Below, piece after piece: positions 14,218-27,719 of a stretch of DNA of 64,000 nucleotides (positions within the stretch are counted from its first letter, which is position 1; each line of letters begins with the position of its first letter). The notes beneath the pieces are model-generated. The model worked only from the letters and a program-made list of their open reading frames with translations, searched no databases and was not told the DNA's origin. The stretch lies in the NCBI RefSeq assembly GCF_019599405.1, contig NZ_RKLQ01000004.1, positions 1-64,000 on the forward strand, read 5' to 3'. This DNA comes from Haloarcula salinisoli. GTDB taxonomy: Archaea; Halobacteriota; Halobacteria; Halobacteriales; Haloarculaceae. A program made the position numbers and the translations under genes.

Positions 14218-17142
14218 ATGTCAGGGACTCCGAAGGAACAGAAATTCCACAGTCTTCTCTACTCGGCTCTTTATCGGTATGTAGAAAATAACGACACGAA
14301 GTTTTCAGAGGTGAGTATTGAGAAGGACGTTGAGGGCAGACGAGCAGATATCCACCTTGATAGTAATCTCACTGGCAGTCTTGTTATAGAAGTTAAACGA
14401 GATGATATTTCGCCATACGACAAAGACGTAATTAAGCAAGCCCGCGATTACACCCGCGACATCGGAGCCGACTTCTTCGCCACATGTAACAGCAACGACT
14501 TCTACCTGTTCAATTATAATGGAGAAATCGAACTCAATGACGTTCCGTACAACTACGCAAATCTCCGCCCAATCAATCTCTCTGACCCGGATCTCGATGG
14601 GTTCGTCCCACAGTTGCTAGCTGGGGTAGACAACCTTTATCAAAGTGGGACACTTCCCGAACAGGAAAAGAAAGAACAAGTTGTCGGGCTTCTCCGTACG
14701 TTCCACTCCACGATATGGCCCGCATACAAAGAACTCGCACAGCAAAAGTACAAATCCAATGAGAAATTCATCAATCTGTTCGACAAATGGGTTCGGGAAA
14801 ACGATTTTACCGGTCTCTCAACAGATGAGCAGTTGGAAACAGCGGCGAAGCAGTACGCGTACCTGCTGACCAATAAGATCCTCTTCTACGAGGTCGTTCG
14901 AGAGCAAACGCCTGAACCAATCGAACCGACGGATGGAAACAAACTCCAATCACTTGTCGGTGAGTCGAGTATCGATTTCCTCGATGAGCACATCCGCCGT
15001 CGGTTCGAAGAGATAATCGAGAAGATCGATTACAAACCAATCTTTCGGAACAGCGACCTCTTCGAGCAATTCCCGAACAATAAAAAGACCCTTCAGAACA
15101 TCCAGTCGCTCGCAGAAAACATTGAGCAACGGGAAATCTCCGGCATCGACGAAGATCTCCTCGGTGACGTGTTTGAAGAGCTTATCCCCGAGAGCGAACG
15201 GAAGAAACTCGGGCAGTACTACACACCGCCAACGATCGCTGAAGCGGTATCAAAATGGGTGCTTGACGCCCCAGCTGAACACGATCTCCCAGACATCCTC
15301 GATCCAGCGTCTGGCAGTGGGACGTTCCCTGTCGAAGTGTACACCGAGCTTAAGAACAACTACCCAGCCGCGTCACATCAAGAGATCCTCGACTCGATCA
15401 CCGCAATCGATATCAACAAATTCCCCCTGCACCTCACCGCGCTCAACCTGGCCAGTCAAAACATCGAAGAAGAAATCGACACCCTGCACGCGTACCACGC
15501 ATCGTTCTTCGATATCGAGCCGGATAGAACGATGCTGACATCTGCGCGGTTAGACGATCAAAACACCGGAGAAGTCGGGTATTTCGATGGAGTCGTCGGG
15601 AATCCCCCGTACATTCGAAACCGTGACATCCCAGACAAAGACGCGTTCAGAGCACACCTCTCACGGTTCGGACCGGAGAACGCATCACCGTACTTGGACG
15701 GGGCGAAGAAACTCAGTAAACGCAGCGACGCGTATGTCTACTTCGTCACGCATGCGACACAGTTCCTACGAGATGGTGGGCGGCTGGGGTACGTGATCCC
15801 ACCGAAGTGGATGACTGTACAGTATGGCTTGGACTTCCAACAGTTCCTCTTCGATCATTACCGCATTCATGCCGTAGTCGCGTTCGCAGAACGAGCATTC
15901 GAAGACGCGTTTGTTGACACGTGCCTGCTGCTCGTAGAACGGTGTGAAAATGAAGAGATACGACGAGAGACAACCACCCACTTCATTCGCGTCCAGGATG
16001 AGATGGAGCCAGTAGACTTGTACGACACCGTCACGTACGGTATGACTCTTGAGCAAGAGCCGATAGATGTGTTAAAACGCCCGAACTACCGTATTGTTGG
16101 GGTCCGGCAAGCGTATCTTGAAGAGACAGGGCCGAAAAAGATGGATTACTACTTGAACGCGCCACTACAGTTAATCAACCTCATTGAGCGAGATGATTTT
16201 GTCCCTCTCAGCACGTTCGCCAATGTGTCTCGTGGCCCCAGCACGGGAGCTGTGAACTTCTTCATCCTGGATAAAGAAGAAGCGCACCGACGTGGGATCG
16301 ACGAGCGATTTTTGAGCCCAGTCGTGAAGAGCATCAAGGACATGGAGTCGGAAGTACTCACGGCGGATCAAATTACCAAGTACATGCTTGACGTGAATGA
16401 CTACGTTGAGCGAGTGAAAACACAGACGAGGGAGTTCGGTGAGGACACAGAACTGGAAGACGATGTAAAGAATGCATTGAAGCGTGATGGTTACACCAAT
16501 CTCCTACAGTACATCACTGAAGGAGAAAACGCAGGTGTGCATGAAGGTGGGACGACCGGTTCACGGAAGGTGTGGTTCAACGCTGGAGACATTATGACGC
16601 CGGAGTTGTTCCATCCACGGTTTTTCAAATGGCGACTATTTACTGTCGTGAACCGTGCTGGAGCGGTGACAACAGACGCCGTACAGTGTGTTCAGGTCAA
16701 GCCAAAGTACGACTCAAAGGTGCTGACTGGAGTGATGAATTCGAGTCTCTACGCTGCAGCAGTTGAGTGTTGGGGGAGGATTGAAGGAAACGGTGTGCTG
16801 CAACTAAACACGTATGAGGTAGCAGGCATTCCTGTGCCTGATATTCGAGAGTTCTCTGAGGAATCGTGTGATGCGATTCGAGAGGCAACTGATGCCTTGC
16901 TGGAGGGAGAATCTGATGCGAAACAACGGCTGAATCAAGCGGTACTTGATGCGGTCGGTGTTGAGGATATGTCAGTCGAAAAGTTGGAAGACATACGGCA
17001 GGTTATGACGAATCAACGACTTGAAGGGGAGTTCGAGTCGGAGGTGATGCTGCAGAATCTTGACGCTGCGACAGAATGGTCGGCTGATTACTTCGGTGAC
17101 GAAAATATAGCTGGAGAAAGCACGTTAGACGACTTCTCGTAA
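14218..17142 (+). CDS. Type IIG restriction-modification protein (nuclease-methylase fusion)
   Basis: 974 residues. The N-terminus has a PD-(D/E)XK nuclease-like core: RRADIHL with D44, then SLVIEVKRD with E58 and K60. A helical linker follows. The N6-adenine methylase part has GQYYTPPTIAEAV, motif I DPASGSGTF (about residues 362-370) and motif IV NPPY (about 461-464). The C-terminal 350 residues resemble a TaqI-type target-recognition region. One polypeptide that cuts and methylates is the type IIG/L arrangement; a BREX PglX-like role is the main alternative, but no other BREX gene is present. Codon use is more AT-rich than the metal genes. TBP-like genes lie on both sides. Confidence 0.85.
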   Translation: MSGTPKEQKFHSLLYSALYRYVENNDTKFSEVSIEKDVEGRRADIHLDSNLTGSLVIEVKRDDISPYDKDVIKQARDYTRDIGADFFATCNSNDFYLFNYNGEIELNDVPYNYANLRPINLSDPDLDGFVPQLLAGVDNLYQSGTLPEQEKKEQVVGLLRTFHSTIWPAYKELAQQKYKSNEKFINLFDKWVRENDFTGLSTDEQLETAAKQYAYLLTNKILFYEVVREQTPEPIEPTDGNKLQSLVGESSIDFLDEHIRRRFEEIIEKIDYKPIFRNSDLFEQFPNNKKTLQNIQSLAENIEQREISGIDEDLLGDVFEELIPESERKKLGQYYTPPTIAEAVSKWVLDAPAEHDLPDILDPASGSGTFPVEVYTELKNNYPAASHQEILDSITAIDINKFPLHLTALNLASQNIEEEIDTLHAYHASFFDIEPDRTMLTSARLDDQNTGEVGYFDGVVGNPPYIRNRDIPDKDAFRAHLSRFGPENASPYLDGAKKLSKRSDAYVYFVTHATQFLRDGGRLGYVIPPKWMTVQYGLDFQQFLFDHYRIHAVVAFAERAFEDAFVDTCLLLVERCENEEIRRETTTHFIRVQDEMEPVDLYDTVTYGMTLEQEPIDVLKRPNYRIVGVRQAYLEETGPKKMDYYLNAPLQLINLIERDDFVPLSTFANVSRGPSTGAVNFFILDKEEAHRRGIDERFLSPVVKSIKDMESEVLTADQITKYMLDVNDYVERVKTQTREFGEDTELEDDVKNALKRDGYTNLLQYITEGENAGVHEGGTTGSRKVWFNAGDIMTPELFHPRFFKWRLFTVVNRAGAVTTDAVQCVQVKPKYDSKVLTGVMNSSLYAAAVECWGRIEGNGVLQLNTYEVAGIPVPDIREFSEESCDAIREATDALLEGESDAKQRLNQAVLDAVGVEDMSVEKLEDIRQVMTNQRLEGEFESEVMLQNLDAATEWSADYFGDENIAGESTLDDFS

Positions 17143-18081: not shown

Positions 18082-19110
18082 ATGATTCGTGATGCTCGTG
18101 TGCTTCGGGCGGGGTTCATACCGAAGGAAATTGAGCATCGCGACGCTGAGTTGAACCACCTCTCCAGCGTTCTGGAGCCGATTACGAACGGGGAACCCGC
18201 CGACACCGCCATTGTCACAGGCCCCAGCGGCGCCGGGAAGACGTGCATCTCGAAGTTTGTTACTGAGAGACTCCGTGAAGAGGTACTGGACATCGAGACA
18301 ACCTACGTCAACTGCTGGCGCAACTACACCCGATTCCGCACGCTGTATCAGATTCTTGACGACCTCGGCCAGACCATCGATATCCACCGGCAGTCGACAC
18401 CGCATGATGAACTTGTCGACCGGATTCAGCAGTACGACGGGCCGCGAACGGTTATCATCCTCGACGAGGTCGACCAGCTGGAAGATCCGGGCATCCTCTA
18501 CGATCTTCACAGTTTGGAGCAGTTCGCGCTGGTCTGTATCGCTAACAAAGAGGAGGAGCTGTTCAGCCGTGTCGACGACCGGCTCGTAAGCCGACTCCGC
18601 TCCAGCGAACACGTCCGGATGGACAAGTACCACGACGAGCAGCTGTACGACATCCTGAGTGCCCGTGCGAAATGGGGTCTCGACGAGGACGTCATCACCG
18701 ACGACCAACTCTATCGCATCGCCGATGCGGCCGCCGGCGACGCCCGTCTCGCGATAGGGATTCTCCGTACCGCCGCTAGCAAGGCTGACAGAGAAGATGA
18801 AGAGCGAATCACAGACGAAATGCTGTTGGACGCTGCGGATGACGCCCGGGCACAAATCAGGCAGACGAGCCTCGATTCGCTCACACCACACCAACAATCC
18901 GTCTACGAAATCGTTCACGAGGATGGTCCGCTCGGACCAGGAGCTATTCACGAACGCTATTGCGACGCCGTCGACGACCCGCGAACGAAACGAACGATTC
19001 GGACATACCTCTCGAAGATGGTCCAGTACAACCTTCTAGAAGCCGAAGGGACAAGCCGAGACCGGCAGTATTCCGTAGTCACCGAGCCAGTCAGTTCGCC
19101 GGTTAACTGA
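18082..19110 (+). CDS. cdc6: Orc1/Cdc6-family replication initiator (first copy)
   Basis: 342 residues. AAA+ motifs: Walker A GPSGAGKT (about residues 48-55), Walker B VIILDEVDQL (about 117-126), sensor 1 LVCIANKEEE, and an arginine-rich sensor 2 region at GDARLAIGILRTAA. A C-terminal winged helix (SLDSLTPHQQSVYEIVHEDG) should bind origin DNA. It is shorter than chromosomal Orc1 proteins, as is common for plasmid paralogs. An ATTATATACC element about 35-40 bp upstream of the ATG fits a haloarchaeal promoter. No G-rich origin repeats lie next to it, unlike the copy at 23200-24663, so it may act on another site or as a regulator. Confidence 0.88.
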   Translation: MIRDARVLRAGFIPKEIEHRDAELNHLSSVLEPITNGEPADTAIVTGPSGAGKTCISKFVTERLREEVLDIETTYVNCWRNYTRFRTLYQILDDLGQTIDIHRQSTPHDELVDRIQQYDGPRTVIILDEVDQLEDPGILYDLHSLEQFALVCIANKEEELFSRVDDRLVSRLRSSEHVRMDKYHDEQLYDILSARAKWGLDEDVITDDQLYRIADAAAGDARLAIGILRTAASKADREDEERITDEMLLDAADDARAQIRQTSLDSLTPHQQSVYEIVHEDGPLGPGAIHERYCDAVDDPRTKRTIRTYLSKMVQYNLLEAEGTSRDRQYSVVTEPVSSPVN

Positions 19111-19145: not shown

Positions 19146-19187
19146 TTAACCAACATTCGGACTGCGTTGGCTCGTTTTGTTGGTTAA
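19146..19187. promoter_or_regulatory. Inverted repeat TTAACCAACA/TGTTGGTTAA upstream of the polymerase operon
   Basis: Perfect 10-bp arms (19146-19155 and 19178-19187) are separated by 22 bp, so equivalent positions are 32 bp apart, about three helical turns. The left arm is followed by TTCGGAC. The same arms, and the same CGGAC after the left arm, occur at 61498-61538 ahead of the nuclease operon. It lies about 150 bp before the RecA-like gene and 35 bp after the Orc1/Cdc6 stop. A shared regulator-binding site is the simplest reading; an initiator-binding site is the alternative. Confidence 0.65.
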
Positions 19188-19340
19188 ACTGTTGCAGACG
19201 ATTCCGGAGAGTTTCGCGGAAGCGGGCTAGACACTCAAAATCCCGGGCACAACGGTCTATTCCAGATTGCTACGGTCGGTTTCCTGAAACACGGAAGCTA
19301 CACGCCGCAGGTTATCGGATCCGTGGACCTCTACTCACGT

Positions 19341-20279
19341 ATGTCAGACCACCCACCCTCGAATCGATTGGAAATTGAGCAACCAACGCGAGGAGCTGAC
19401 CGGAATCGGTCCATTTCCAGCCAACCTGATACAGCGAGCGACGACATCCTACTTCCCTCACTTGAGGACGGCATCACGCTGTTGGACGTCGACGGCAGTC
19501 GGGGCGTGCCAATCCTGCAGTCGATAGTCCTCGATCATCTCCTCATGCGCGACGGGCCCGCTTTCTGGGTTGACGCCAACGGGCACGCCACGACCACCAC
19601 GCTCTCACGAATCGCTCCCAGCCAACGGTTGCTCGACCGGATCCACGTTGCACGCGGATTCACCGCCTACCAACATTACGGCGCTGTCTGTGATCTCCCG
19701 ACGGCAGTGAACCACTGTATTCAGGAATCGACAACAGGGGACAGCTTGGGAGAGCGACGGTCCACGGATTGCGATGGGGAGACGTCTCCTCACACACCCT
19801 CACTCATCGTCGCCCCAGCCATCGATGCACAGTACCGTGCCGACGATACCCTTGGAGAGGCACACGCCGAGACGCTCCAAGCCCGAGCGCTCGCCAAGCT
19901 AGCGACCTATGCTGAGGGGTACGACATCCCCGTTCTGGTCACCCGAAGCAAGCGCGACGAGTTCGCGGCACCGGTCGAGACGGCCGCTGATCACTATCTG
20001 GAGTGCGAGCAGACCCGGATGGGACCGAAAATTAGTGGCGATGACTTCGAGACACTCCTCTACCCCGTCGACGACAGCGCTTACTACCAGACGACGTTTG
20101 CCTACTGGCGACAGTTGCTCGCGGCACGCGCCACGCAGGTCGGCGTGGAACCGGCGACGCCGTCAACGCCGACCCAGGAAGGCGTCGGGACAGGCGTCAC
20201 AGCCGACGGTGAGACGGTTTCGGCCACCGCGGACCCCTTACTCGATGCGTGGACCGCGACCGGGACAGGAGGCCGATAG
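19341..20279 (+). CDS. RecA/RadA-like protein lacking a Walker A motif (polymerase operon)
   Basis: 312 residues from ATG 19341 (GTG 19323 is possible). The core follows a RecA/RadA pattern: GITLLDVDG, then where a P-loop should be only GSRGVPIL, then a helix, AFWVDANGHATT, LDRIHVARGFTAYQH as in RadA, and a strand SLIVAPAIDAQY. The absence of GxxxxGK[ST] implies no ATP hydrolysis. It is the first gene of a tight three-gene set with a small coiled-coil protein (2 bp gap) and an exo-dead B-family polymerase. A RecA-like helper next to a polymerase recalls the bacterial ImuA/ImuB/DnaE2 mutasome; that parallel is inference. Confidence 0.6.
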   Translation: MSDHPPSNRLEIEQPTRGADRNRSISSQPDTASDDILLPSLEDGITLLDVDGSRGVPILQSIVLDHLLMRDGPAFWVDANGHATTTTLSRIAPSQRLLDRIHVARGFTAYQHYGAVCDLPTAVNHCIQESTTGDSLGERRSTDCDGETSPHTPSLIVAPAIDAQYRADDTLGEAHAETLQARALAKLATYAEGYDIPVLVTRSKRDEFAAPVETAADHYLECEQTRMGPKISGDDFETLLYPVDDSAYYQTTFAYWRQLLAARATQVGVEPATPSTPTQEGVGTGVTADGETVSATADPLLDAWTATGTGGR

Positions 20280-20281
20280 CG

Positions 20282-20587
20282 ATGGGGCGCACCAACCCAA
20301 CGTACCGAGACGCTCTCCGGGCCATCGAAGAACGTTGGGCGGAGTTCCGCCGGGCACTGCGGCGTCGCGACCAGCCCCGGTTCGACCGACTGTTCGAATA
20401 CGCCCGCGAGCATGCTGACGCGAGCGGGCTGTTGAACCACCAGAACCCGCTGCTGCCGGCGCTGCTTAGCATCAATCTCGAACAAGAGGCCCGCCTCGAC
20501 GACCACGAAGAGCGTCTCGAGGAACTCGAAGCCGCGGTCGCAGTAAGCGAGGACCAGGAGACAGCTCCACCGGACTCGAACTCGTGA
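20282..20587 (+). CDS. Small coiled-coil protein between RecA-like and polymerase genes
   Basis: 101 residues from ATG 20282, two bases after the preceding stop. It starts MGRTNPTYRDALRAIEERW, continues with Arg-rich helices and ends in a Glu-rich coiled coil (LDDHEERLEELEAAV). It has no catalytic motif. Tight packing on both sides (its TGA overlaps an in-frame GTG of polB) suggests co-translation and a scaffolding or subunit role with the polymerase. Similar small proteins upstream of polB in other haloarchaeal plasmids come to mind, but this was not checked. Confidence 0.7.
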   Translation: MGRTNPTYRDALRAIEERWAEFRRALRRRDQPRFDRLFEYAREHADASGLLNHQNPLLPALLSINLEQEARLDDHEERLEELEAAVAVSEDQETAPPDSNS

Positions 20588-20589
20588 CG

Positions 20590-22740
20590 ATGCCGTTCAC
20601 CATCGACTTTCTGGACGACGGCCGCGTCCTGGAGTGGGAAGCAACCGACGACAGCGCCGTCGCGACCGAGCGCAATGACTACACCCCTCGCTTCTACGTC
20701 GCCCCTCGCGACCCAGAGACTGACCTCGACCTCACGACACTCCAGTCGGTGTACGACCAGCACCCGGATGTCGTCACGACCGAGATGGTTGCGCGACGGC
20801 CGGGCTTTCGGCGAGGCGAGGAGACAGTCCTCGCCGTCGACGCCGCCCACATCGACCGCGTCACTCCGCTCGCTCGGCAGGCACGCCAGTTGTCCGACTA
20901 TCCGATCGGTGGTATCGCATGCTTCAACGTCGATTTCTCGCGAGAGTTCCGGTACTGCTTGGAGAACAGCGTCGATCCAACGCCGGCGAGCGAGCTGTCG
21001 ACGCTCCGCCTCAGCGTCCCGGTGACCGAAACGAGCAACGATATCTATGGAGAACTGTCCGTCGCCGGCGACACCGTCACCGGCTCGCCGACGGAGCTCT
21101 TGACCGCCGTCCAGGGGGCGCTCGAAGGACATGATCCGGACATCCTGGTCTGCTCAACCAGCGAGATTGTCCCGACGCTGTACGAGATGGCGACGGCCGC
21201 CGGCGTCGACGACTTCTCGCTGAGTCGGTGGCCGGACGTGGACTATCAGCAGCTCGCGGGTGCGTCGACCTACGCCAGCTACGGCCAAGTGGGCCACTCG
21301 CCAGCGCGATACAACGTGCCCGGCCGGGCCATCATCGACGAGTCGAACACGTTCTTCTACGGAGAGACGAACCTCGATGGTGTCCTCGACCTCGTGTCGC
21401 GCTCGAAAAAGCCCGTCCAAGAACTCGCCTGGGCATCTATCGGGAACGTCCTGACGGCAATTCAGATCTGTGAAGCCCACGACCGCGGCGTGCTCGTCCC
21501 GTGGAACTCCTGGCGTCACGAATTCTTCAAGCCAATGGGCACGCTGCACGACGCCGACCGTGGCGGGTTCATCTTCGCACCGGAGGTCGGTTTCCACGAG
21601 AACGTTCACGAACTCGACTTTTCGAGTTTGTATCCGAACATCATCTGTACGCGAAACGTCTCACCGGACGTCATCAGGTGTGACTGCCATAGCGACCGTG
21701 GCGATGTGCCCGAATTGGGGTACTCGATTTGTGACGAGCGTGGCTACCTCGTCGACGTCCTCCAGCCGATCATCGACGCCCGAGACGAGATCAAGGCGGC
21801 CATCCGTCGAGAACGCCAACGTGACGAGCCCAACGAAAAGCGCCTCGACGAACTCGAGGGTCGCTCGGGAGCGCTGAAGTGGATCCTCGTCGCGTGCTTC
21901 GGCTACCAAGGGTTCAGTAACGCGAAATTCGGTCGTATCGAGTGCCACGAAGCGATCAACGCCTACGCTCGTGAGATATTGCTCGTGGCGAAACAGCGCC
22001 TAGAGGCGGGCGGCTGGCGCGTCGTCCATGGCATCGTTGACTCCATCTGGGTGACCCCAGACCCCGACGTCGACGACGATGCTCGTGAGGACCTCGAAAC
22101 GCTCGCGATGGACATTACCGATGAAGTCGAGATTCGCCTCGAGTACGAAGCTCACTACGATTGGGTGGCGTTCGTCCCGCAGCGAGAGAGCGACGCCGGC
22201 GCGTTGACGAAATACTTCGGGAAGGTCAGTGGCCAAGAGGAGTTCAAGCTCCGTGGCATCGAAGCCCGCCAGCGGTCGACACCGCCGTTCATCGAAGCGG
22301 TACAACGGGAGTTTATAGAGGTGCTTGATGAGACACGGTCAGCAGACGCAGTCATCCGCCGGCTCAAAGCGGCGATTGCGAGACTGCATTCCGGGGAGGT
22401 TGTTGCCGACCAACTTGTCGAACGGAATCGAGTCTCAAAACCACTGGAAGGGTATACCCAGAACACGCAGAACGTGGCCGCGCTCAAACGGGCACGAGAT
22501 CAAGAATTGGGCGTCCATCCGGGACAGGACATCGAGTACGTGGTAGTCGACGATCAGAAATTATCTCGGGACCGTGTCGCCCTAGCTCATGAAGAGATTG
22601 AGGAATACGATCCCGAGTACTACGAGACACAGCTCGTTCGAGCGGTCGAGAGTATCCTCTCTCCAAAAGGGTGGGACCGGACAGATATTCGACGGGAGCT
22701 CGCTGAAACAACTACGAGGAGACTGAGAGACTATTGTTGA
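20590..22740 (+). CDS. polB: B-family DNA polymerase without exonuclease motifs
   Basis: 716 residues. Polymerase motifs are present: motif A DFSSLYPNI (D343), motif B beginning K430 (LKWILVACFGYQGFSN) and motif C HGIVDSIWV (D484). Motif C normally reads YGDTDS; here the first Asp is Ile, while the second, catalytic Asp is kept. The 3'-5' exonuclease region shows no DIE (LSTLRLSVPVTET instead), no NxxxFD (LVCSTSEIVPTL) and no clear YxxxD, so proofreading should be absent. The protein is shorter than replicative PolB. Start ATG 20590; GTG 20584 overlaps the upstream stop. A stand-alone DEDDy exonuclease at 62927-63652 may compensate. Confidence 0.9.
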   Translation: MPFTIDFLDDGRVLEWEATDDSAVATERNDYTPRFYVAPRDPETDLDLTTLQSVYDQHPDVVTTEMVARRPGFRRGEETVLAVDAAHIDRVTPLARQARQLSDYPIGGIACFNVDFSREFRYCLENSVDPTPASELSTLRLSVPVTETSNDIYGELSVAGDTVTGSPTELLTAVQGALEGHDPDILVCSTSEIVPTLYEMATAAGVDDFSLSRWPDVDYQQLAGASTYASYGQVGHSPARYNVPGRAIIDESNTFFYGETNLDGVLDLVSRSKKPVQELAWASIGNVLTAIQICEAHDRGVLVPWNSWRHEFFKPMGTLHDADRGGFIFAPEVGFHENVHELDFSSLYPNIICTRNVSPDVIRCDCHSDRGDVPELGYSICDERGYLVDVLQPIIDARDEIKAAIRRERQRDEPNEKRLDELEGRSGALKWILVACFGYQGFSNAKFGRIECHEAINAYAREILLVAKQRLEAGGWRVVHGIVDSIWVTPDPDVDDDAREDLETLAMDITDEVEIRLEYEAHYDWVAFVPQRESDAGALTKYFGKVSGQEEFKLRGIEARQRSTPPFIEAVQREFIEVLDETRSADAVIRRLKAAIARLHSGEVVADQLVERNRVSKPLEGYTQNTQNVAALKRARDQELGVHPGQDIEYVVVDDQKLSRDRVALAHEEIEEYDPEYYETQLVRAVESILSPKGWDRTDIRRELAETTTRRLRDYC

Positions 22741-22875: not shown

Positions 22876-22898
22876 TTTACACATCGATGACGGGGGGT
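22876..22898 (+). repeat. Origin recognition box 1
   Basis: TTTACACATCGATGACGGGG followed by GGTG: a full match to the repeat consensus, left side of the origin. Confidence 0.85.
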
Positions 22899-22948
22899 GC
22901 AATATGTCTGGGAGAGATTCCAGTCGAGGTCTGCCGGAGATGTGCAAG

Positions 22949-22970
22949 TTACACATCGATGACGGGGGGT
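22949..22970 (+). repeat. Origin recognition box 2
   Basis: TTACACATCGATGACGGGGG plus GT: full match, 73 bp from box 1 and in the same orientation. Confidence 0.85.
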
Positions 22971-23036
22971 GTGGCTGACAAATGATTTGAACGACAATAT
23001 CAGAGCGTTATCCAAATCCGGCCAATCCGCTCGCTG

Positions 23037-23058
23037 TTACACTTCGAGCACGGGGGGT
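23037..23058 (+). repeat. Origin recognition box 3 (variant)
   Basis: TTACACTTCGAGCACGGGGG plus GT: three substitutions in the AT part, with the G run intact. It is the closest left-hand box to the initiator gene. Confidence 0.75.
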
Positions 23059-23199
23059 GAACCACAGTAATGTACTTCGTTACCGGTACAGAGCCCATAT
23101 ATTCCAGATTGGCAAATATGAGGGATAGCCCAAATGAGGCGGAGATATATACATCGACGGAGGTTAATCTTTTTAGTACCTGCGTCACACAGCAGGAGT

Positions 23200-24663
23200 A
23201 TGGCCGGCAGCAATCAGGGTGGGAGCGACCAATCTACGTTGGAAGGGGAATCAACGCAATCAGAGGTAGAGGAGAAGCCCAACGCCACTGAAGATAATCA
23301 CGCTGCCGACGACGCATCCCTCACTCTTTCTGAAGAGGATTCTAGCGAGAGTACACAGCAGTCGATTCGGGATATGCTCAACGAGGAGGGTAACGGGTCA
23401 GTATTCGTCAATCGGGATCTCGTCGAGCCCGACACCATCATCGACGAAGAGCGAATCGTCGGTCGCGACGATCAGCTCGAATCGGTCGTGTCATTCCTGA
23501 AGCCGACACTGCAAGCAAACCGACCGCCGAATATGCTCCTCTACGGCCCCGCCGGTACTGGAAAGTCACTCATTATCGGTGCTGTGACCCAGCAAATTGT
23601 CGAGCTCTGCAAATCGAAGGGCGAGAGCTTCGGTGTTGTCGACATCAACTGCCAGCCGATCAATACGCTCGATCAAGCGGTCTACGAACTTGTCCAGACA
23701 GTCGCCAAAGACGTCGGCGCAGAAGTGGGCGTCCCCGAAACTGGCGTGTCGACGAAACGCAAGTACCGACGTCTCTACGAACTCATCAACGAACACTACG
23801 ATTCGGTCATCTTCATCCTCGACGAGATCGACCTCCTGGTCGGACGCCGCGCTAACGACGAACCCGCCTACTCGAAGTTGCTCTACCAGCTCTCACGAGC
23901 CAGCAATACGAACGAAATAGAGGGCAGAGTATCCGTCGCAGCGCTGACGAACGACCCGAAATTCATGGAGGACATCGACGGCCGAGCCGAGAGTTCGTTC
24001 AACCCACGGGACGTCTACTTCCCAGATTACGACGCTAATCAACTGCGCGAGATACTCCAGAATCGTCGCGATGCCTTCCGACCAGACGCCCTCTCTGATG
24101 ACGTGATTCCACTCGTCGCTGCTTTTGCAGCGCAGAGTCACGGGGACGCTCGGAAGGCAATTGACCTGTTCCGTGGCGCCGGCGACCTCGCCGACGAGCG
24201 TGGTGAGGACAGCGTCGACGAACACCACGTCCGAGAATCCCAGGAAGAAATCGATAAGGACCGCTCGTTGAAACTCGTGGAGGGGCTCACGACGCAGAAG
24301 AAGATCTCGCTGTACGCCACTGCCGCCGTCGCACATTATTCGAAGCGTTCAGGCAGTTCCGTTCCGAGCCCAGTTGGATTCAAAGTGTATCAGTGGGTTA
24401 CTGATGAGCTCGACGCGGATCAAATGACTCGAGAGACGTATGTCAAGTACGTCAAAGAACTTTCTACGTACGGGCTCATCTCGACGTCGAGGAAGAGTCG
24501 AGGCCGCGGCGGGGGGATGTACATGGAGTTCACCTTCACGGGTGACCCTACGGGGATTATGGATCGAGTCACCGACGATACTCGTTTAGAGGGCATCGTT
24601 GGACAAGGAGAACTACTCCGAACGGTGGTTAACGCACAGCTCAAAGAGTTCCACCAAGACTGA
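23200..24663 (+). CDS. cdc6: Orc1/Cdc6-family origin-binding initiator (second copy, origin-linked)
   Basis: 487 residues from ATG 23200 (GGAG just upstream). The first ~85 residues are an acidic disordered head. The AAA+ core has Walker A GPAGTGKS (about residue 127 on), Walker B VIFILDEIDLL, sensor 1 VAALTNDPKFM and sensor 2 at HGDARKAIDLFRGAG. A C-terminal winged helix (YATAAVAHYSKRSG, then TRETYVKYVKEL) should read the origin. In haloarchaea an initiator with its own set of flanking repeats defines the replicon, so this is the probable replication initiator of the element. Confidence 0.92.
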   Translation: MAGSNQGGSDQSTLEGESTQSEVEEKPNATEDNHAADDASLTLSEEDSSESTQQSIRDMLNEEGNGSVFVNRDLVEPDTIIDEERIVGRDDQLESVVSFLKPTLQANRPPNMLLYGPAGTGKSLIIGAVTQQIVELCKSKGESFGVVDINCQPINTLDQAVYELVQTVAKDVGAEVGVPETGVSTKRKYRRLYELINEHYDSVIFILDEIDLLVGRRANDEPAYSKLLYQLSRASNTNEIEGRVSVAALTNDPKFMEDIDGRAESSFNPRDVYFPDYDANQLREILQNRRDAFRPDALSDDVIPLVAAFAAQSHGDARKAIDLFRGAGDLADERGEDSVDEHHVRESQEEIDKDRSLKLVEGLTTQKKISLYATAAVAHYSKRSGSSVPSPVGFKVYQWVTDELDADQMTRETYVKYVKELSTYGLISTSRKSRGRGGGMYMEFTFTGDPTGIMDRVTDDTRLEGIVGQGELLRTVVNAQLKEFHQD

Positions 24664-25357: not shown

Positions 25358-25729
25358 TCACTTGGGGTTAACCGGGGCAATGTATTCATTCTTCCACGAA
25401 TCGCCCTCTCGCCACTGCCAGTAGAAATATCGGTACGATTTATCGCCAGTCTCCTTCGTAGTCTTCACCGTGATGTAGGCTCCACCCGGAACATCGCTGT
25501 AGTCCTCGGGATCGGTCGAGATATCTCGTTCACTAAGTTCTTCAAGCTCCTCTTCGTCAACTTCTTCCTCGGCTCGACGTTGTTCCAGTTCTGCCTTTCG
25601 TTGTTCTCGTTTCCACTCAGCAAGGTCACTTGCGTAGGCCGCTACCGTTTCCAGCCGTTCCGGGGACTGTTTCTCGAGTGGCTCGCGAAGATACTTCGGA
25701 AGATCCGGAGTCGGGGGCCTCTCTGCCAT
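25358..25729 (-). CDS. Small plasmid protein of unknown function with coiled coil
   Basis: 123 residues from ATG 25729. A Pro-rich head (MAERPPTPDLPKYLREPL) precedes a long Glu/Arg coiled coil (LAEWKREQRKAELEQRRAEE) and a beta-rich end (GGAYITVKTT, then YRYFYWQWREGDSWK). Proteins of this appearance are often found beside haloarchaeal plasmid origins; no function is known to me. Its ATG lies inside the left arm of a perfect 14-bp inverted repeat whose loop holds the probable TATA region, so it is likely autoregulated. Confidence 0.7.
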   Translation of the reverse strand: MAERPPTPDLPKYLREPLEKQSPERLETVAAYASDLAEWKREQRKAELEQRRAEEEVDEEELEELSERDISTDPEDYSDVPGGAYITVKTTKETGDKSYRYFYWQWREGDSWKNEYIAPVNPK

Positions 25730-25776
25730 AGTTACCCCACGAGGCGAAAACACTTTGAATTTGTGGGGTAACTATG
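25727..25776. promoter_or_regulatory. Perfect 14-bp inverted repeat with a start codon in each arm
   Basis: CATAGTTACCCCAC (25727-25740) and GTGGGGTAACTATG (25763-25776) are exact complements separated by 22 bp. The left arm contains the start codon of the small coiled-coil protein. The right arm contains a mirror-image ATG that opens a 48-codon frame rightward. The loop includes CTTTGAATTT, a weak TATA-like sequence. The geometry (two 10-bp cores 32 bp apart) equals that of the 19146-19187 repeat, although the sequence differs. Confidence 0.6.
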
Positions 25777-26738: not shown

Positions 26739-27272
26739 ATGCTTATGACGGAGTTTGACCCGGCGCCAGAGTCACCAGCCACCGAACGACGGTGGCAGCA
26801 GGGGGAGGATACGTTCAGTCGTGTCTACGATGTCGCTATGGGGATTACGTCACCCACCCCCGCTGCCGAGATTGCAGACGTCGCAGATTGCTCTCCGAAC
26901 GCTGCGAAAAAGCATCTCGATCGACTGGCGAAAATGGGTATCGTCAGTGTGAACCGCGACGGTCGGCCCGTGCAGTACGAACGCAACGAGGGGTATCTCG
27001 AATGGCAAGATGCCAGCCGGATTGCTGACGAACTGACCGTCGAGGAGATTATCGAACGGGTCAGTGAGCTCGAAGAAGAACGGGCCGACTATGAAGACGA
27101 ATTTGACGCTACCGATCCAACTGCTGTGAGCGTTTACGACCAGGACAGTCACGAGGCTATTCATGACCGGATGGCTGCAGTCAGTGAGTGGCACGGTGTT
27201 ATTCGGGATATTCGACTGTACGAACTCGCCCGCCAGCTCGCAGAGAACGATGGGCACCTCATCCCGGCATAG
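26739..27272 (+). CDS. Winged-HTH protein, antitoxin-like partner (module A)
   Basis: 177 residues. A winged helix spans residues ~25-80 (SRVYDVAMGITSPTPAAEIA, recognition helix CSPNAAKKHLDRLAKMGIV, wing VNRDGRPVQYERNEG). A helical tail follows (TVEEIIERVSELEEERADYE). A TATATT element about 20-25 bp before the ATG fits leaderless transcription. Its stop is immediately followed by the ATG of the TumE-like gene. The same two-gene order recurs at 56662-57649, which argues for a functional pair; an antitoxin/repressor role is inferred. Confidence 0.75.
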   Translation: MLMTEFDPAPESPATERRWQQGEDTFSRVYDVAMGITSPTPAAEIADVADCSPNAAKKHLDRLAKMGIVSVNRDGRPVQYERNEGYLEWQDASRIADELTVEEIIERVSELEEERADYEDEFDATDPTAVSVYDQDSHEAIHDRMAAVSEWHGVIRDIRLYELARQLAENDGHLIPA

Positions 27273-27719
27273 ATGGGGCCAGACCCAACCACACCGAATT
27301 CAGGTTCTCCCGGTCCACCCGACCGACAGACGCTGCAACTCCTGGCCCGGCACCTTCGAACTGAGGCACTCATTGCCGAGACGAAATTCGATCCCGACAG
27401 CTACGAGCCTCGCCTGCTTCACGCCTTAGTCGACGCTGGACAGTATCCTGAGGGTGTCGTAGCGGCTCGACTCGACATTCGCTGGTTCACGACGGGAGAT
27501 TTCTCGTTCCACTACGTCGAAACACACGAGGATGAAAGCCGATGGGAGTGTCGCTGGGACCGTCATCCGAACCCACACAACGCACGAGTGCACTTCCACC
27601 AACCACCAACCGCAGTGGAAGCCACCGACTTGTCACTGTCATCACGCCATCCGCTGGATGTCTACTCTACGATTCTTGATGCTATCGAGGGGCGTATCCA
27701 ATCACTCTGGGAGAATTAA
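27273..27719 (+). CDS. TumE-like protein (module A)
   Basis: 148 residues beginning directly after the upstream stop. The central block DIRWFTTGDFSFHY, then WECRWDRHPNPHNARVHFH, recalls the strand plus R[YW]D...H...HxH pattern of TumE/DUF6516 proteins such as the one at 12381-12680. It ends with a helix (STILDAIEGRIQSLW). The paralog at 57221-57649 keeps the same WECRWDxHPNxHNxxxHFH motif, which marks the likely active site. Relationship to TumE and toxicity are inferred from motif and gene order. Confidence 0.65.
   Translation: MGPDPTTPNSGSPGPPDRQTLQLLARHLRTEALIAETKFDPDSYEPRLLHALVDAGQYPEGVVAARLDIRWFTTGDFSFHYVETHEDESRWECRWDRHPNPHNARVHFHQPPTAVEATDLSLSSRHPLDVYSTILDAIEGRIQSLWEN

What the first reader, a model, noticed from the sequence alone, without database searches (positions are those of the whole stretch)
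19341..22740. Operon of a P-loop-less RecA-like protein, a coiled-coil protein and an exo-dead B-family polymerase
Three genes are packed with 2-bp gaps or overlap. The first has a RadA-like core (LDRIHVARGFTAYQH) but no Walker A. The third keeps polymerase motifs A, B and C but has lost all three exonuclease motifs. A RecA-like helper next to a non-proofreading polymerase is the logic of the bacterial ImuA/ImuB/DnaE2 mutasome, built here from archaeal parts. It could be a plasmid-borne translesion or replication set.
Basis: partly seen in the sequence, partly recalled or inferred. Interest (0 to 1): 0.75.

Follow-up and report, generated by a model that had tools for sequence, protein, structure and literature searches.

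The report
Haloarchaeal plasmid copy of PolB2 mutasome
Three adjacent genes on a salt-loving archaeon's plasmid-like contig encode a known type of damage-tolerance DNA polymerase complex (PolB2 with a dead RadA-like protein and a small helical partner); the finding is real, but this kind of gene set was already described in 2014 and modelled in 2025.

Summary
The trio is real. It is the known archaeal PolB2 operon in the order iRadA - PPB2 (arCOG07300) - PolB2, predicted to form a translesion-synthesis mutasome (PMC4104785, PMC11791011). Gene 1 is RadA-related by profile (E=2e-11) and by fold, with no ATPase site. Gene 2 starts with the diagnostic MGRT arm. Gene 3 is a B-family polymerase with a dead exonuclease. 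The trio is common: 60 of 65 best haloarchaeal loci carry all three, as do 19 of 20 sampled loci of a second subtype, and 183 of 293 genomes of the order have a PolB2. The copy sits beside an Orc1/Cdc6 gene with three ORB-like repeats on a 219-kb contig and is under purifying selection. The mutasome idea is right but already published; ImuA/ImuB/DnaE2 is analogy only. Possibly new details: a strongly conserved promoter block, a FEN1-like clamp-binding motif at the iRadA C-terminus, placement beside exchangeable origins, and, in 19 related loci but not here, a separate 3'-5' exonuclease gene after PPB2. No damage-response or biochemical data exist for this copy.

The parts
19341..20279 (+). iRadA: inactive RadA/Rad51 homologue, 312 aa
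   Evidence: Profile vs PDB RadA E=2.3e-11; AF2 model pLDDT 71.7, Foldseek RadA/RAD51/DMC1; no Walker A/B; conserved in 60/65 best loci
20232..20255 (+). conserved C-terminal peptide DPLLDAWT of iRadA after a variable linker; PIP-box-like
   Evidence: P[LM]L.[AT]W in the last 40 aa of 64/65 plasmid-type iRadA; the organism's own FEN1 ends QTGLDRWT
20282..20587 (+). PPB2 (arCOG07300), 101 aa, small helical protein with N-terminal MGRT arm
   Evidence: MGRT at the start in 64/66 homologues and R9 in 65/66; alignment; MGRT is the diagnostic arm in PMC11791011
20590..22740 (+). PolB2: B-family polymerase, exonuclease site lost, motif C HGIVDS
   Evidence: AF2 pLDDT 84.7; Foldseek archaeal PolB E about 1e-38
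21004..21033 (+). position of degenerate exonuclease motif I (LRLSVPVTET; DIE replaced by SVP)
   Evidence: alignment to Pyrococcus abyssi PolB; coordinates
21517..21567 (+). flexible loop HEFFKPMGTLHDADRGG with the D(K/R) motif, predicted in the published model to dock iRadA and the PPB2 arm
   Evidence: ADRGG invariant in 30 PolB2; residues 309-326 have pLDDT <50 in the monomer model; role from PMC11791011
22027..22053 (+). polymerase motif C HGIVDSIWV (first catalytic Asp replaced by Ile)
   Evidence: invariant in 30 sequences; aligned to YIDTDGLY of P. abyssi
19280..19316 (+). conserved promoter block TTTCCTGAAACACGGAAGC...GGTTATC, TTAT box about 26-29 nt before the iRadA ATG
   Evidence: up to 1.39 bits/column against 0.08-0.3 further upstream in 34 non-redundant loci; TTCCGN{2,5}TTTCN{1,2}GRAA matches only 3 sites in the 4-Mb genome, 2 of them in this promoter
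19146..19187 (.). inverted repeat TTAACCAACA-N22-TGTTGGTTAA
   Evidence: TGTTGGTTAA in 33 of 82 upstream regions
18082..19110 (+). upstream Orc1/Cdc6-like AAA+ protein with winged helix
   Evidence: Pfam Cdc6_lid 1.1e-13, AAA_22, wHTH; found upstream of iRadA in many loci
22877..23059 (+). three 23-nt ORB-like repeats (TTACACATCGATGACGGGGGGTG), putative replication origin
   Evidence: 56 of 70 loci have at least 3 G-run repeats at the Orc beside PolB2, 0 in shuffles
23134..24663 (+). downstream Orc1/Cdc6 initiator-like gene
   Evidence: Pfam Cdc6_lid 2.4e-25 and Cdc6_C 2.9e-14; Orc downstream of PolB2 in 69 of 77 loci

Best explanation
This is a haloarchaeal plasmid-type PolB2 mutasome operon. 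iRadA, a RadA fold that has lost its ATPase site, and a PPB2 trimer assemble on PolB2. PolB2 lacks proofreading, so it can extend mismatched or distorted primer ends past DNA lesions, giving damage tolerance at the cost of mutations. The iRadA tail probably tethers the complex to PCNA. Shown here: gene content, homology, folds, loss of ATPase and exonuclease sites, conserved signature motifs, conservation and purifying selection, promoter conservation, origin-side location. Inferred from the family: complex formation, translesion extension, damage induction. Inferred from sequence only: PCNA tethering and plasmid location.
For: Order iRadA-PPB2-PolB2 with 2-bp gaps; RadA homology and fold without ATPase site; MGRT arm; D(K/R) loop and IxD motif C as in PolB2; exonuclease motifs lost; trio in 60/65 plasmid-type loci and 19/20 loci of the 55-61% identical type; Orc1/Cdc6 neighbour as published; dN/dS 0.10-0.18 for PolB2; S. 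islandicus PolB2 is an active extender without exonuclease and is required for targeted mutagenesis (PMC8764526, PMC7390963); heteropentamer model (PMC11791011).
Against: No experiment on a haloarchaeal PolB2 activity was found; deletion in Halobacterium and H. volcanii is viable, and no phenotype was given in the passages read. The complex could not be modelled here (single chains only). The operon lacks the exact haloarchaeal UV-B motif TTTCACTTTCA; its conserved promoter block has no known regulator. Constant placement beside Orc genes and origins would also fit a replicon-linked role.
Confidence: 0.87

Rival explanations
1. Replicon-linked function: the trio is part of the plasmid replication module, acting with the neighbouring Orc and origin to start or restart plasmid replication rather than to bypass lesions.
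For: An Orc/Cdc6 gene lies downstream of PolB2 in 69/77 loci and 56/70 have ORB-like repeat arrays there; Makarova et al. suggested a role in origin regulation; relatives are mainly on plasmids.
Against: The neighbouring Orc and ORB types differ between loci while PolB2 stays mostly 80-87% identical, so the polymerase is not matched to one origin; polB2 of pNRC200 is dispensable; a second, often chromosomal, type of the same trio exists without this cassette in many genomes; the motif set matches a translesion family.
Confidence: 0.08
2. Structural or regulatory pseudo-enzyme: PolB2 is catalytically dead and the complex only binds stalled forks or primer ends.
For: First motif C Asp lost, exonuclease dead, ATPase dead; earlier authors called PolB2 inactivated.
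Against: S. islandicus PolB2 with the same type of substitution has robust polymerase activity; motif A and the second motif C Asp are invariant and PolB2 is under strong purifying selection.
Confidence: 0.04
3. A true archaeal ImuA/ImuB/DnaE2 relative.
For: A RecA-family helper is next to an error-prone polymerase.
Against: The polymerase is B-family, no Y-family ImuB-like protein is present, and gene 1 matches RadA/RAD51 by profile.
Confidence: 0.01

Closest known systems
Archaeal/bacterial PolB2 mutasome (PolB2 + iRadA + PPB2/arCOG07300; Timinskas 2025 PMC11791011, Makarova 2014 PMC4104785)
   Same: Gene order, MGRT arm, inactive RadA, dead exonuclease, IxD motif C, D(K/R) loop, Orc1/Cdc6 neighbour
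   Different: Haloarchaeal plasmid subtype: longer iRadA with a linker and C-terminal LDxWT peptide, a conserved promoter block, an origin-side location
Sulfolobus Dpo2 (PMC8764526, PMC7390963)
   Same: PolB2 group, no exonuclease, replaced first motif C Asp, non-essential
   Different: Dpo2 has experimental data for translesion extension and targeted mutagenesis; this copy has none
E. coli Pol V (UmuD'2C-RecA)
   Same: Error-prone polymerase plus RecA-family protein plus small oligomeric subunit; plasmid-borne homologues exist
   Different: Y-family polymerase, active RecA, UmuD' unrelated to PPB2; analogy, not homology
ImuA-ImuB-DnaE2 mutasome
   Same: RecA-like helper in an operon with a damage-tolerance polymerase
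   Different: C-family polymerase and Y-family ImuB; neither is present here
Halobacterium sp. NRC-1 polB2 on pNRC200 (PMC1906834)
   Same: 86% identical PolB2 beside an Orc gene on a megaplasmid
   Different: At that pNRC200 locus no adjacent iRadA/PPB2 is annotated within 8 kb

Membership tests
PolB2 mutasome | Same-strand operon iRadA-PPB2-PolB2 | tested here: met
   2-bp gaps; conserved in 60/65 loci
PolB2 mutasome | B-family polymerase with exonuclease active site lost | tested here: met
   motif I DIE->SVP, motif II lost; a conserved Asp (D250) lies near the motif III position, so motif III loss is less certain
PolB2 mutasome | First Asp of the DxD motif replaced in most members | tested here: met
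   HGIVDS invariant in 30 sequences
PolB2 mutasome | D(K/R) motif in a loop before the palm | tested here: met
   ADRGG invariant; loop 309-326 low pLDDT
PolB2 mutasome | RadA/Rad51 fold lacking ATPase residues and the N-terminal helical domain | tested here: met
PolB2 mutasome | PPB2 with conserved N-terminal MGRT arm | tested here: met
   64/66, alignment
PolB2 mutasome | PPB2 trimer and heteropentamer assembly | not testable with these tools
   only single-chain prediction available
PolB2 mutasome | Clamp-binding motif in iRadA or PolB2 C-terminus (a fraction of members) | tested here: inconclusive
   LDAWT in iRadA resembles own FEN1 QTGLDRWT but lacks Gln; no binding test
PolB2 mutasome | orc1/cdc6 enriched in the neighbourhood | tested here: met
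   two flanking genes; 69/77 loci downstream
PolB2 mutasome | DNA-damage-inducible transcription | not testable with these tools
   conserved promoter block found, but no expression data; exact UV-B motif absent from this promoter
ImuA-ImuB-DnaE2 | C-family DnaE2 polymerase | tested here: not met
   B-family by Pfam, NCBIfam and fold
ImuA-ImuB-DnaE2 | Y-family ImuB | tested here: not met
   the middle gene is a 101-aa PPB2; no such ORF in the operon
Pol V | Y-family UmuC with UmuD' and active RecA | tested here: not met

The most novel reading that the evidence does not exclude
Haloarchaeal plasmids carry PolB2 mutasomes as a standard backbone module placed beside exchangeable replication origins, under a dedicated conserved damage-response promoter. 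In a subset of relatives the proofreading function lost from PolB2 is supplied in trans by an operonic 3'-5' exonuclease, making a split, regulated proofreader for a translesion polymerase. The window's copy would be the exonuclease-free version.
Probability: 0.15. Interest if true: 0.55.

Novelty: new member of a known kind. Interest (0 to 1): 0.3.

Why it matters
The kind is known, so the value is in tractability and detail. Haloarchaea such as Haloferax volcanii are easy to manipulate and polB2 can be deleted, so the untested prediction that PolB2, iRadA and PPB2 form a mutasome can be tested directly. The conserved promoter block may identify a damage-response element, and the plasmid location parallels bacterial plasmid-borne Pol V genes.

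Tried and rejected
Literal ImuA/ImuB/DnaE2 homology: rejected on polymerase family. Viral origin: no match in IMG/VR; in the phage collection only distant polymerases, 26-33% identity. Origin-repeat control of the operon promoter: the three ORB-like repeats lie downstream, and no direct repeat was found in the operon's own promoter. Regulation by the known UV-B motif TTTCACTTTCA: not at this promoter; found instead at radA, an RPA-like gene and an Orc gene of the same genome; the chromosomal paralogue has a near-match TTTACTTTCACTTCCA. Regulon search with the new block: only one further site in the genome, in front of a doubtful ORF. Weak hits of the exonuclease profile inside iRadA-PPB2 regions are probably out-of-frame artefacts of two family members called with wrong upstream starts.

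Full report
Observation. Three genes run on the + strand: 19341-20279 (312 aa, P0001), 20282-20587 (101 aa, P0002) and 20590-22740 (716 aa, P0003), each separated by 2 bp.

Gene 1 has no Pfam match, but a profile built from 42 homologues finds archaeal RadA structures at E=2.3e-11. AlphaFold2 gives a RecA-like core (mean pLDDT 71.7, above 90 in much of the core; termini disordered). Foldseek's best PDB hits are DMC1, RadA and RAD51 with E about 1e-10, probability 1.0, and TM up to 0.69 on the RadA core.

Gene 3 is a B-family polymerase: Pfam DNA_pol_B 1.3e-24, NCBIfam NF004418 1404 bits with cut-off 692, AF2 pLDDT 84.7, Foldseek to Pyrococcus/9N polymerases at about 1e-38. Exonuclease motif I (DIE) reads SVP and motif II is gone; near motif III a conserved Asp remains, so I do not claim that every acid is lost.

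Identity. These features define the PolB2 gene set. Makarova et al. 2014 (PMC4104785) described the operon of PolB2, inactivated RadA and arCOG07300, including haloarchaeal members and an Orc neighbour. Timinskas et al. 2025 (PMC11791011) named the parts iRadA and PPB2, modelled a PolB2:iRadA:PPB2(3) heteropentamer and compared it with Pol V. The hallmarks tested here are met: MGRT at the PPB2 N-terminus in 64 of 66 homologues and R9 in 65 of 66; the D(K/R) motif (ADRGG) invariant in a loop that is disordered in the monomer model; IxD in motif C; Orc1/Cdc6 genes on both sides.

Conservation survey. tblastn finds PolB2-like sequence on 171 plasmid records, 89 with a place covering at least 80% of the query, the close ones haloarchaeal. 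A genome scan gave 364 related stretches; the best 80 were fetched. Of 65 with at least 6.5 kb upstream, 60 carry iRadA and PPB2 upstream on the same strand, 32 directly adjacent and 28 with 0.7-5.9 kb inserted between PPB2 and PolB2. Twenty loci of a 55-61% identical subtype were sampled; 19 have all three genes. In the order, 183 of 293 genomes have a PolB2 at E<=1e-60. The window's genome has a second copy on contig C1. dN/dS against four relatives is 0.10-0.18 for PolB2, 0.14-0.28 for iRadA and 0.09-0.41 for PPB2, so the operon is maintained.

Context. The window is part of a 219,028-base contig. Downstream of PolB2 lie three 23-nt repeats ending in GGGGGGTG and an Orc1/Cdc6 gene with the Cdc6 C-terminal domain, the usual look of a haloarchaeal replication origin. 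Of 70 loci, 56 have at least three such G-run repeats at the Orc beside PolB2, none in shuffles. Repeat and Orc types differ between loci while PolB2 is nearly constant, so the origin cassette is exchangeable. SRAP (SOS-associated peptidase) genes, reported as enriched near polB2, form a cluster found in 23 of the fetched loci, but not here.

New details. (1) The iRadA tail ends in a variable linker followed by [DN]PLLDAWT; P[LM]L.[AT]W is present in 64 of 65 homologues. The same organism's FEN1 ends in QTGLDRWT, so this is probably the PCNA-binding peptide that the 2025 paper reports for many iRadA proteins; it lacks the Gln. (2) Immediately upstream of iRadA is a block, consensus TTtCCcTGAAACgCGGAAGCGacACGCCGCGGCTTATC, with up to 1.39 bits per column against 0.08-0.3 further upstream in 34 non-redundant loci, ending in a TATA-like box about 26-30 nt before the ATG. 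The pattern TTCCGN{2,5}TTTCN{1,2}GRAA occurs at three places in the 4-Mb genome, two of them in this promoter. The other subtype has related TTYC...GAAA...GGAA elements. The known UV-B motif TTTCACTTTCA (PMC2556686) is not here, but lies upstream of radA and other genes of this genome. Damage induction of the window operon is therefore plausible but not shown.

Mechanism. Steps shown: three-gene operon, folds, lost ATPase and exonuclease sites, conservation. Inferred: iRadA docks on PolB2 through a RadA-type oligomerisation motif, a PPB2 trimer inserts its MGRT arm near the active site, and the complex extends distorted primer ends after a lesion. The best experimental support is from Sulfolobus, where PolB2 is active, has no exonuclease, is an efficient extender and is required for induced mutagenesis (PMC8764526, PMC7390963). 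In haloarchaea polB2 is dispensable (PMC1906834, PMC7776575), which argues against an essential replicase role.

Verdict. The ImuA/ImuB/DnaE2 parallel is analogy without homology. It is a new member of a known kind, with some possibly new details worth following.

Noticed in passing
L049:3396-4040, L021:2878-3519, L054:5406-6050 and 16 other related loci (not in the window): A stand-alone putative 3'-5' exonuclease of the RNase_H_2 superfamily (PF13482; FDIETTG, NGErW.GGFDLPFL, HNvaDIRR) directly follows PPB2, in most loci with no gap, before PolB2, in 19 loci. A polymerase with a dead exonuclease may have a proofreader or trimmer supplied in trans; the main text of the 2025 paper does not mention RNase-type genes, plasmids or promoters.
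   Followed up: partly
L025:4027-5469 and 6 other related loci: A metallophosphatase fused to an RNase_H_2 domain lies upstream of iRadA.
   Followed up: no
own genome contig C2:462373 (L119): An Orc1/Cdc6 gene carries the exact haloarchaeal UV-B motif TTTCACTTTCA in front of it, as do radA (L117) and an RPA-like gene (L118); a candidate counterpart of the Sulfolobus damage regulator Orc1-2.
   Followed up: partly
28 related loci, between PPB2 and PolB2: The operon is interrupted by 0.7-5.9 kb inserts, often an inverted pair of HTH (DUF7342-like) and unknown genes whose homologues lie at window 26739-27719.
   Followed up: partly
window 14218-17142: A 974-aa Eco57I/N6-methylase type restriction-modification protein.
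   Followed up: no
window 25361-25753 (-): A small acidic protein without a Pfam match, conserved near the Orc gene in 63 loci; apparently part of the plasmid backbone.
   Followed up: no
window 19146-19187: Inverted repeat TTAACCAACA-N22-TGTTGGTTAA upstream of iRadA; TGTTGGTTAA occurs in 33 of 82 upstream regions; role unknown.
   Followed up: partly
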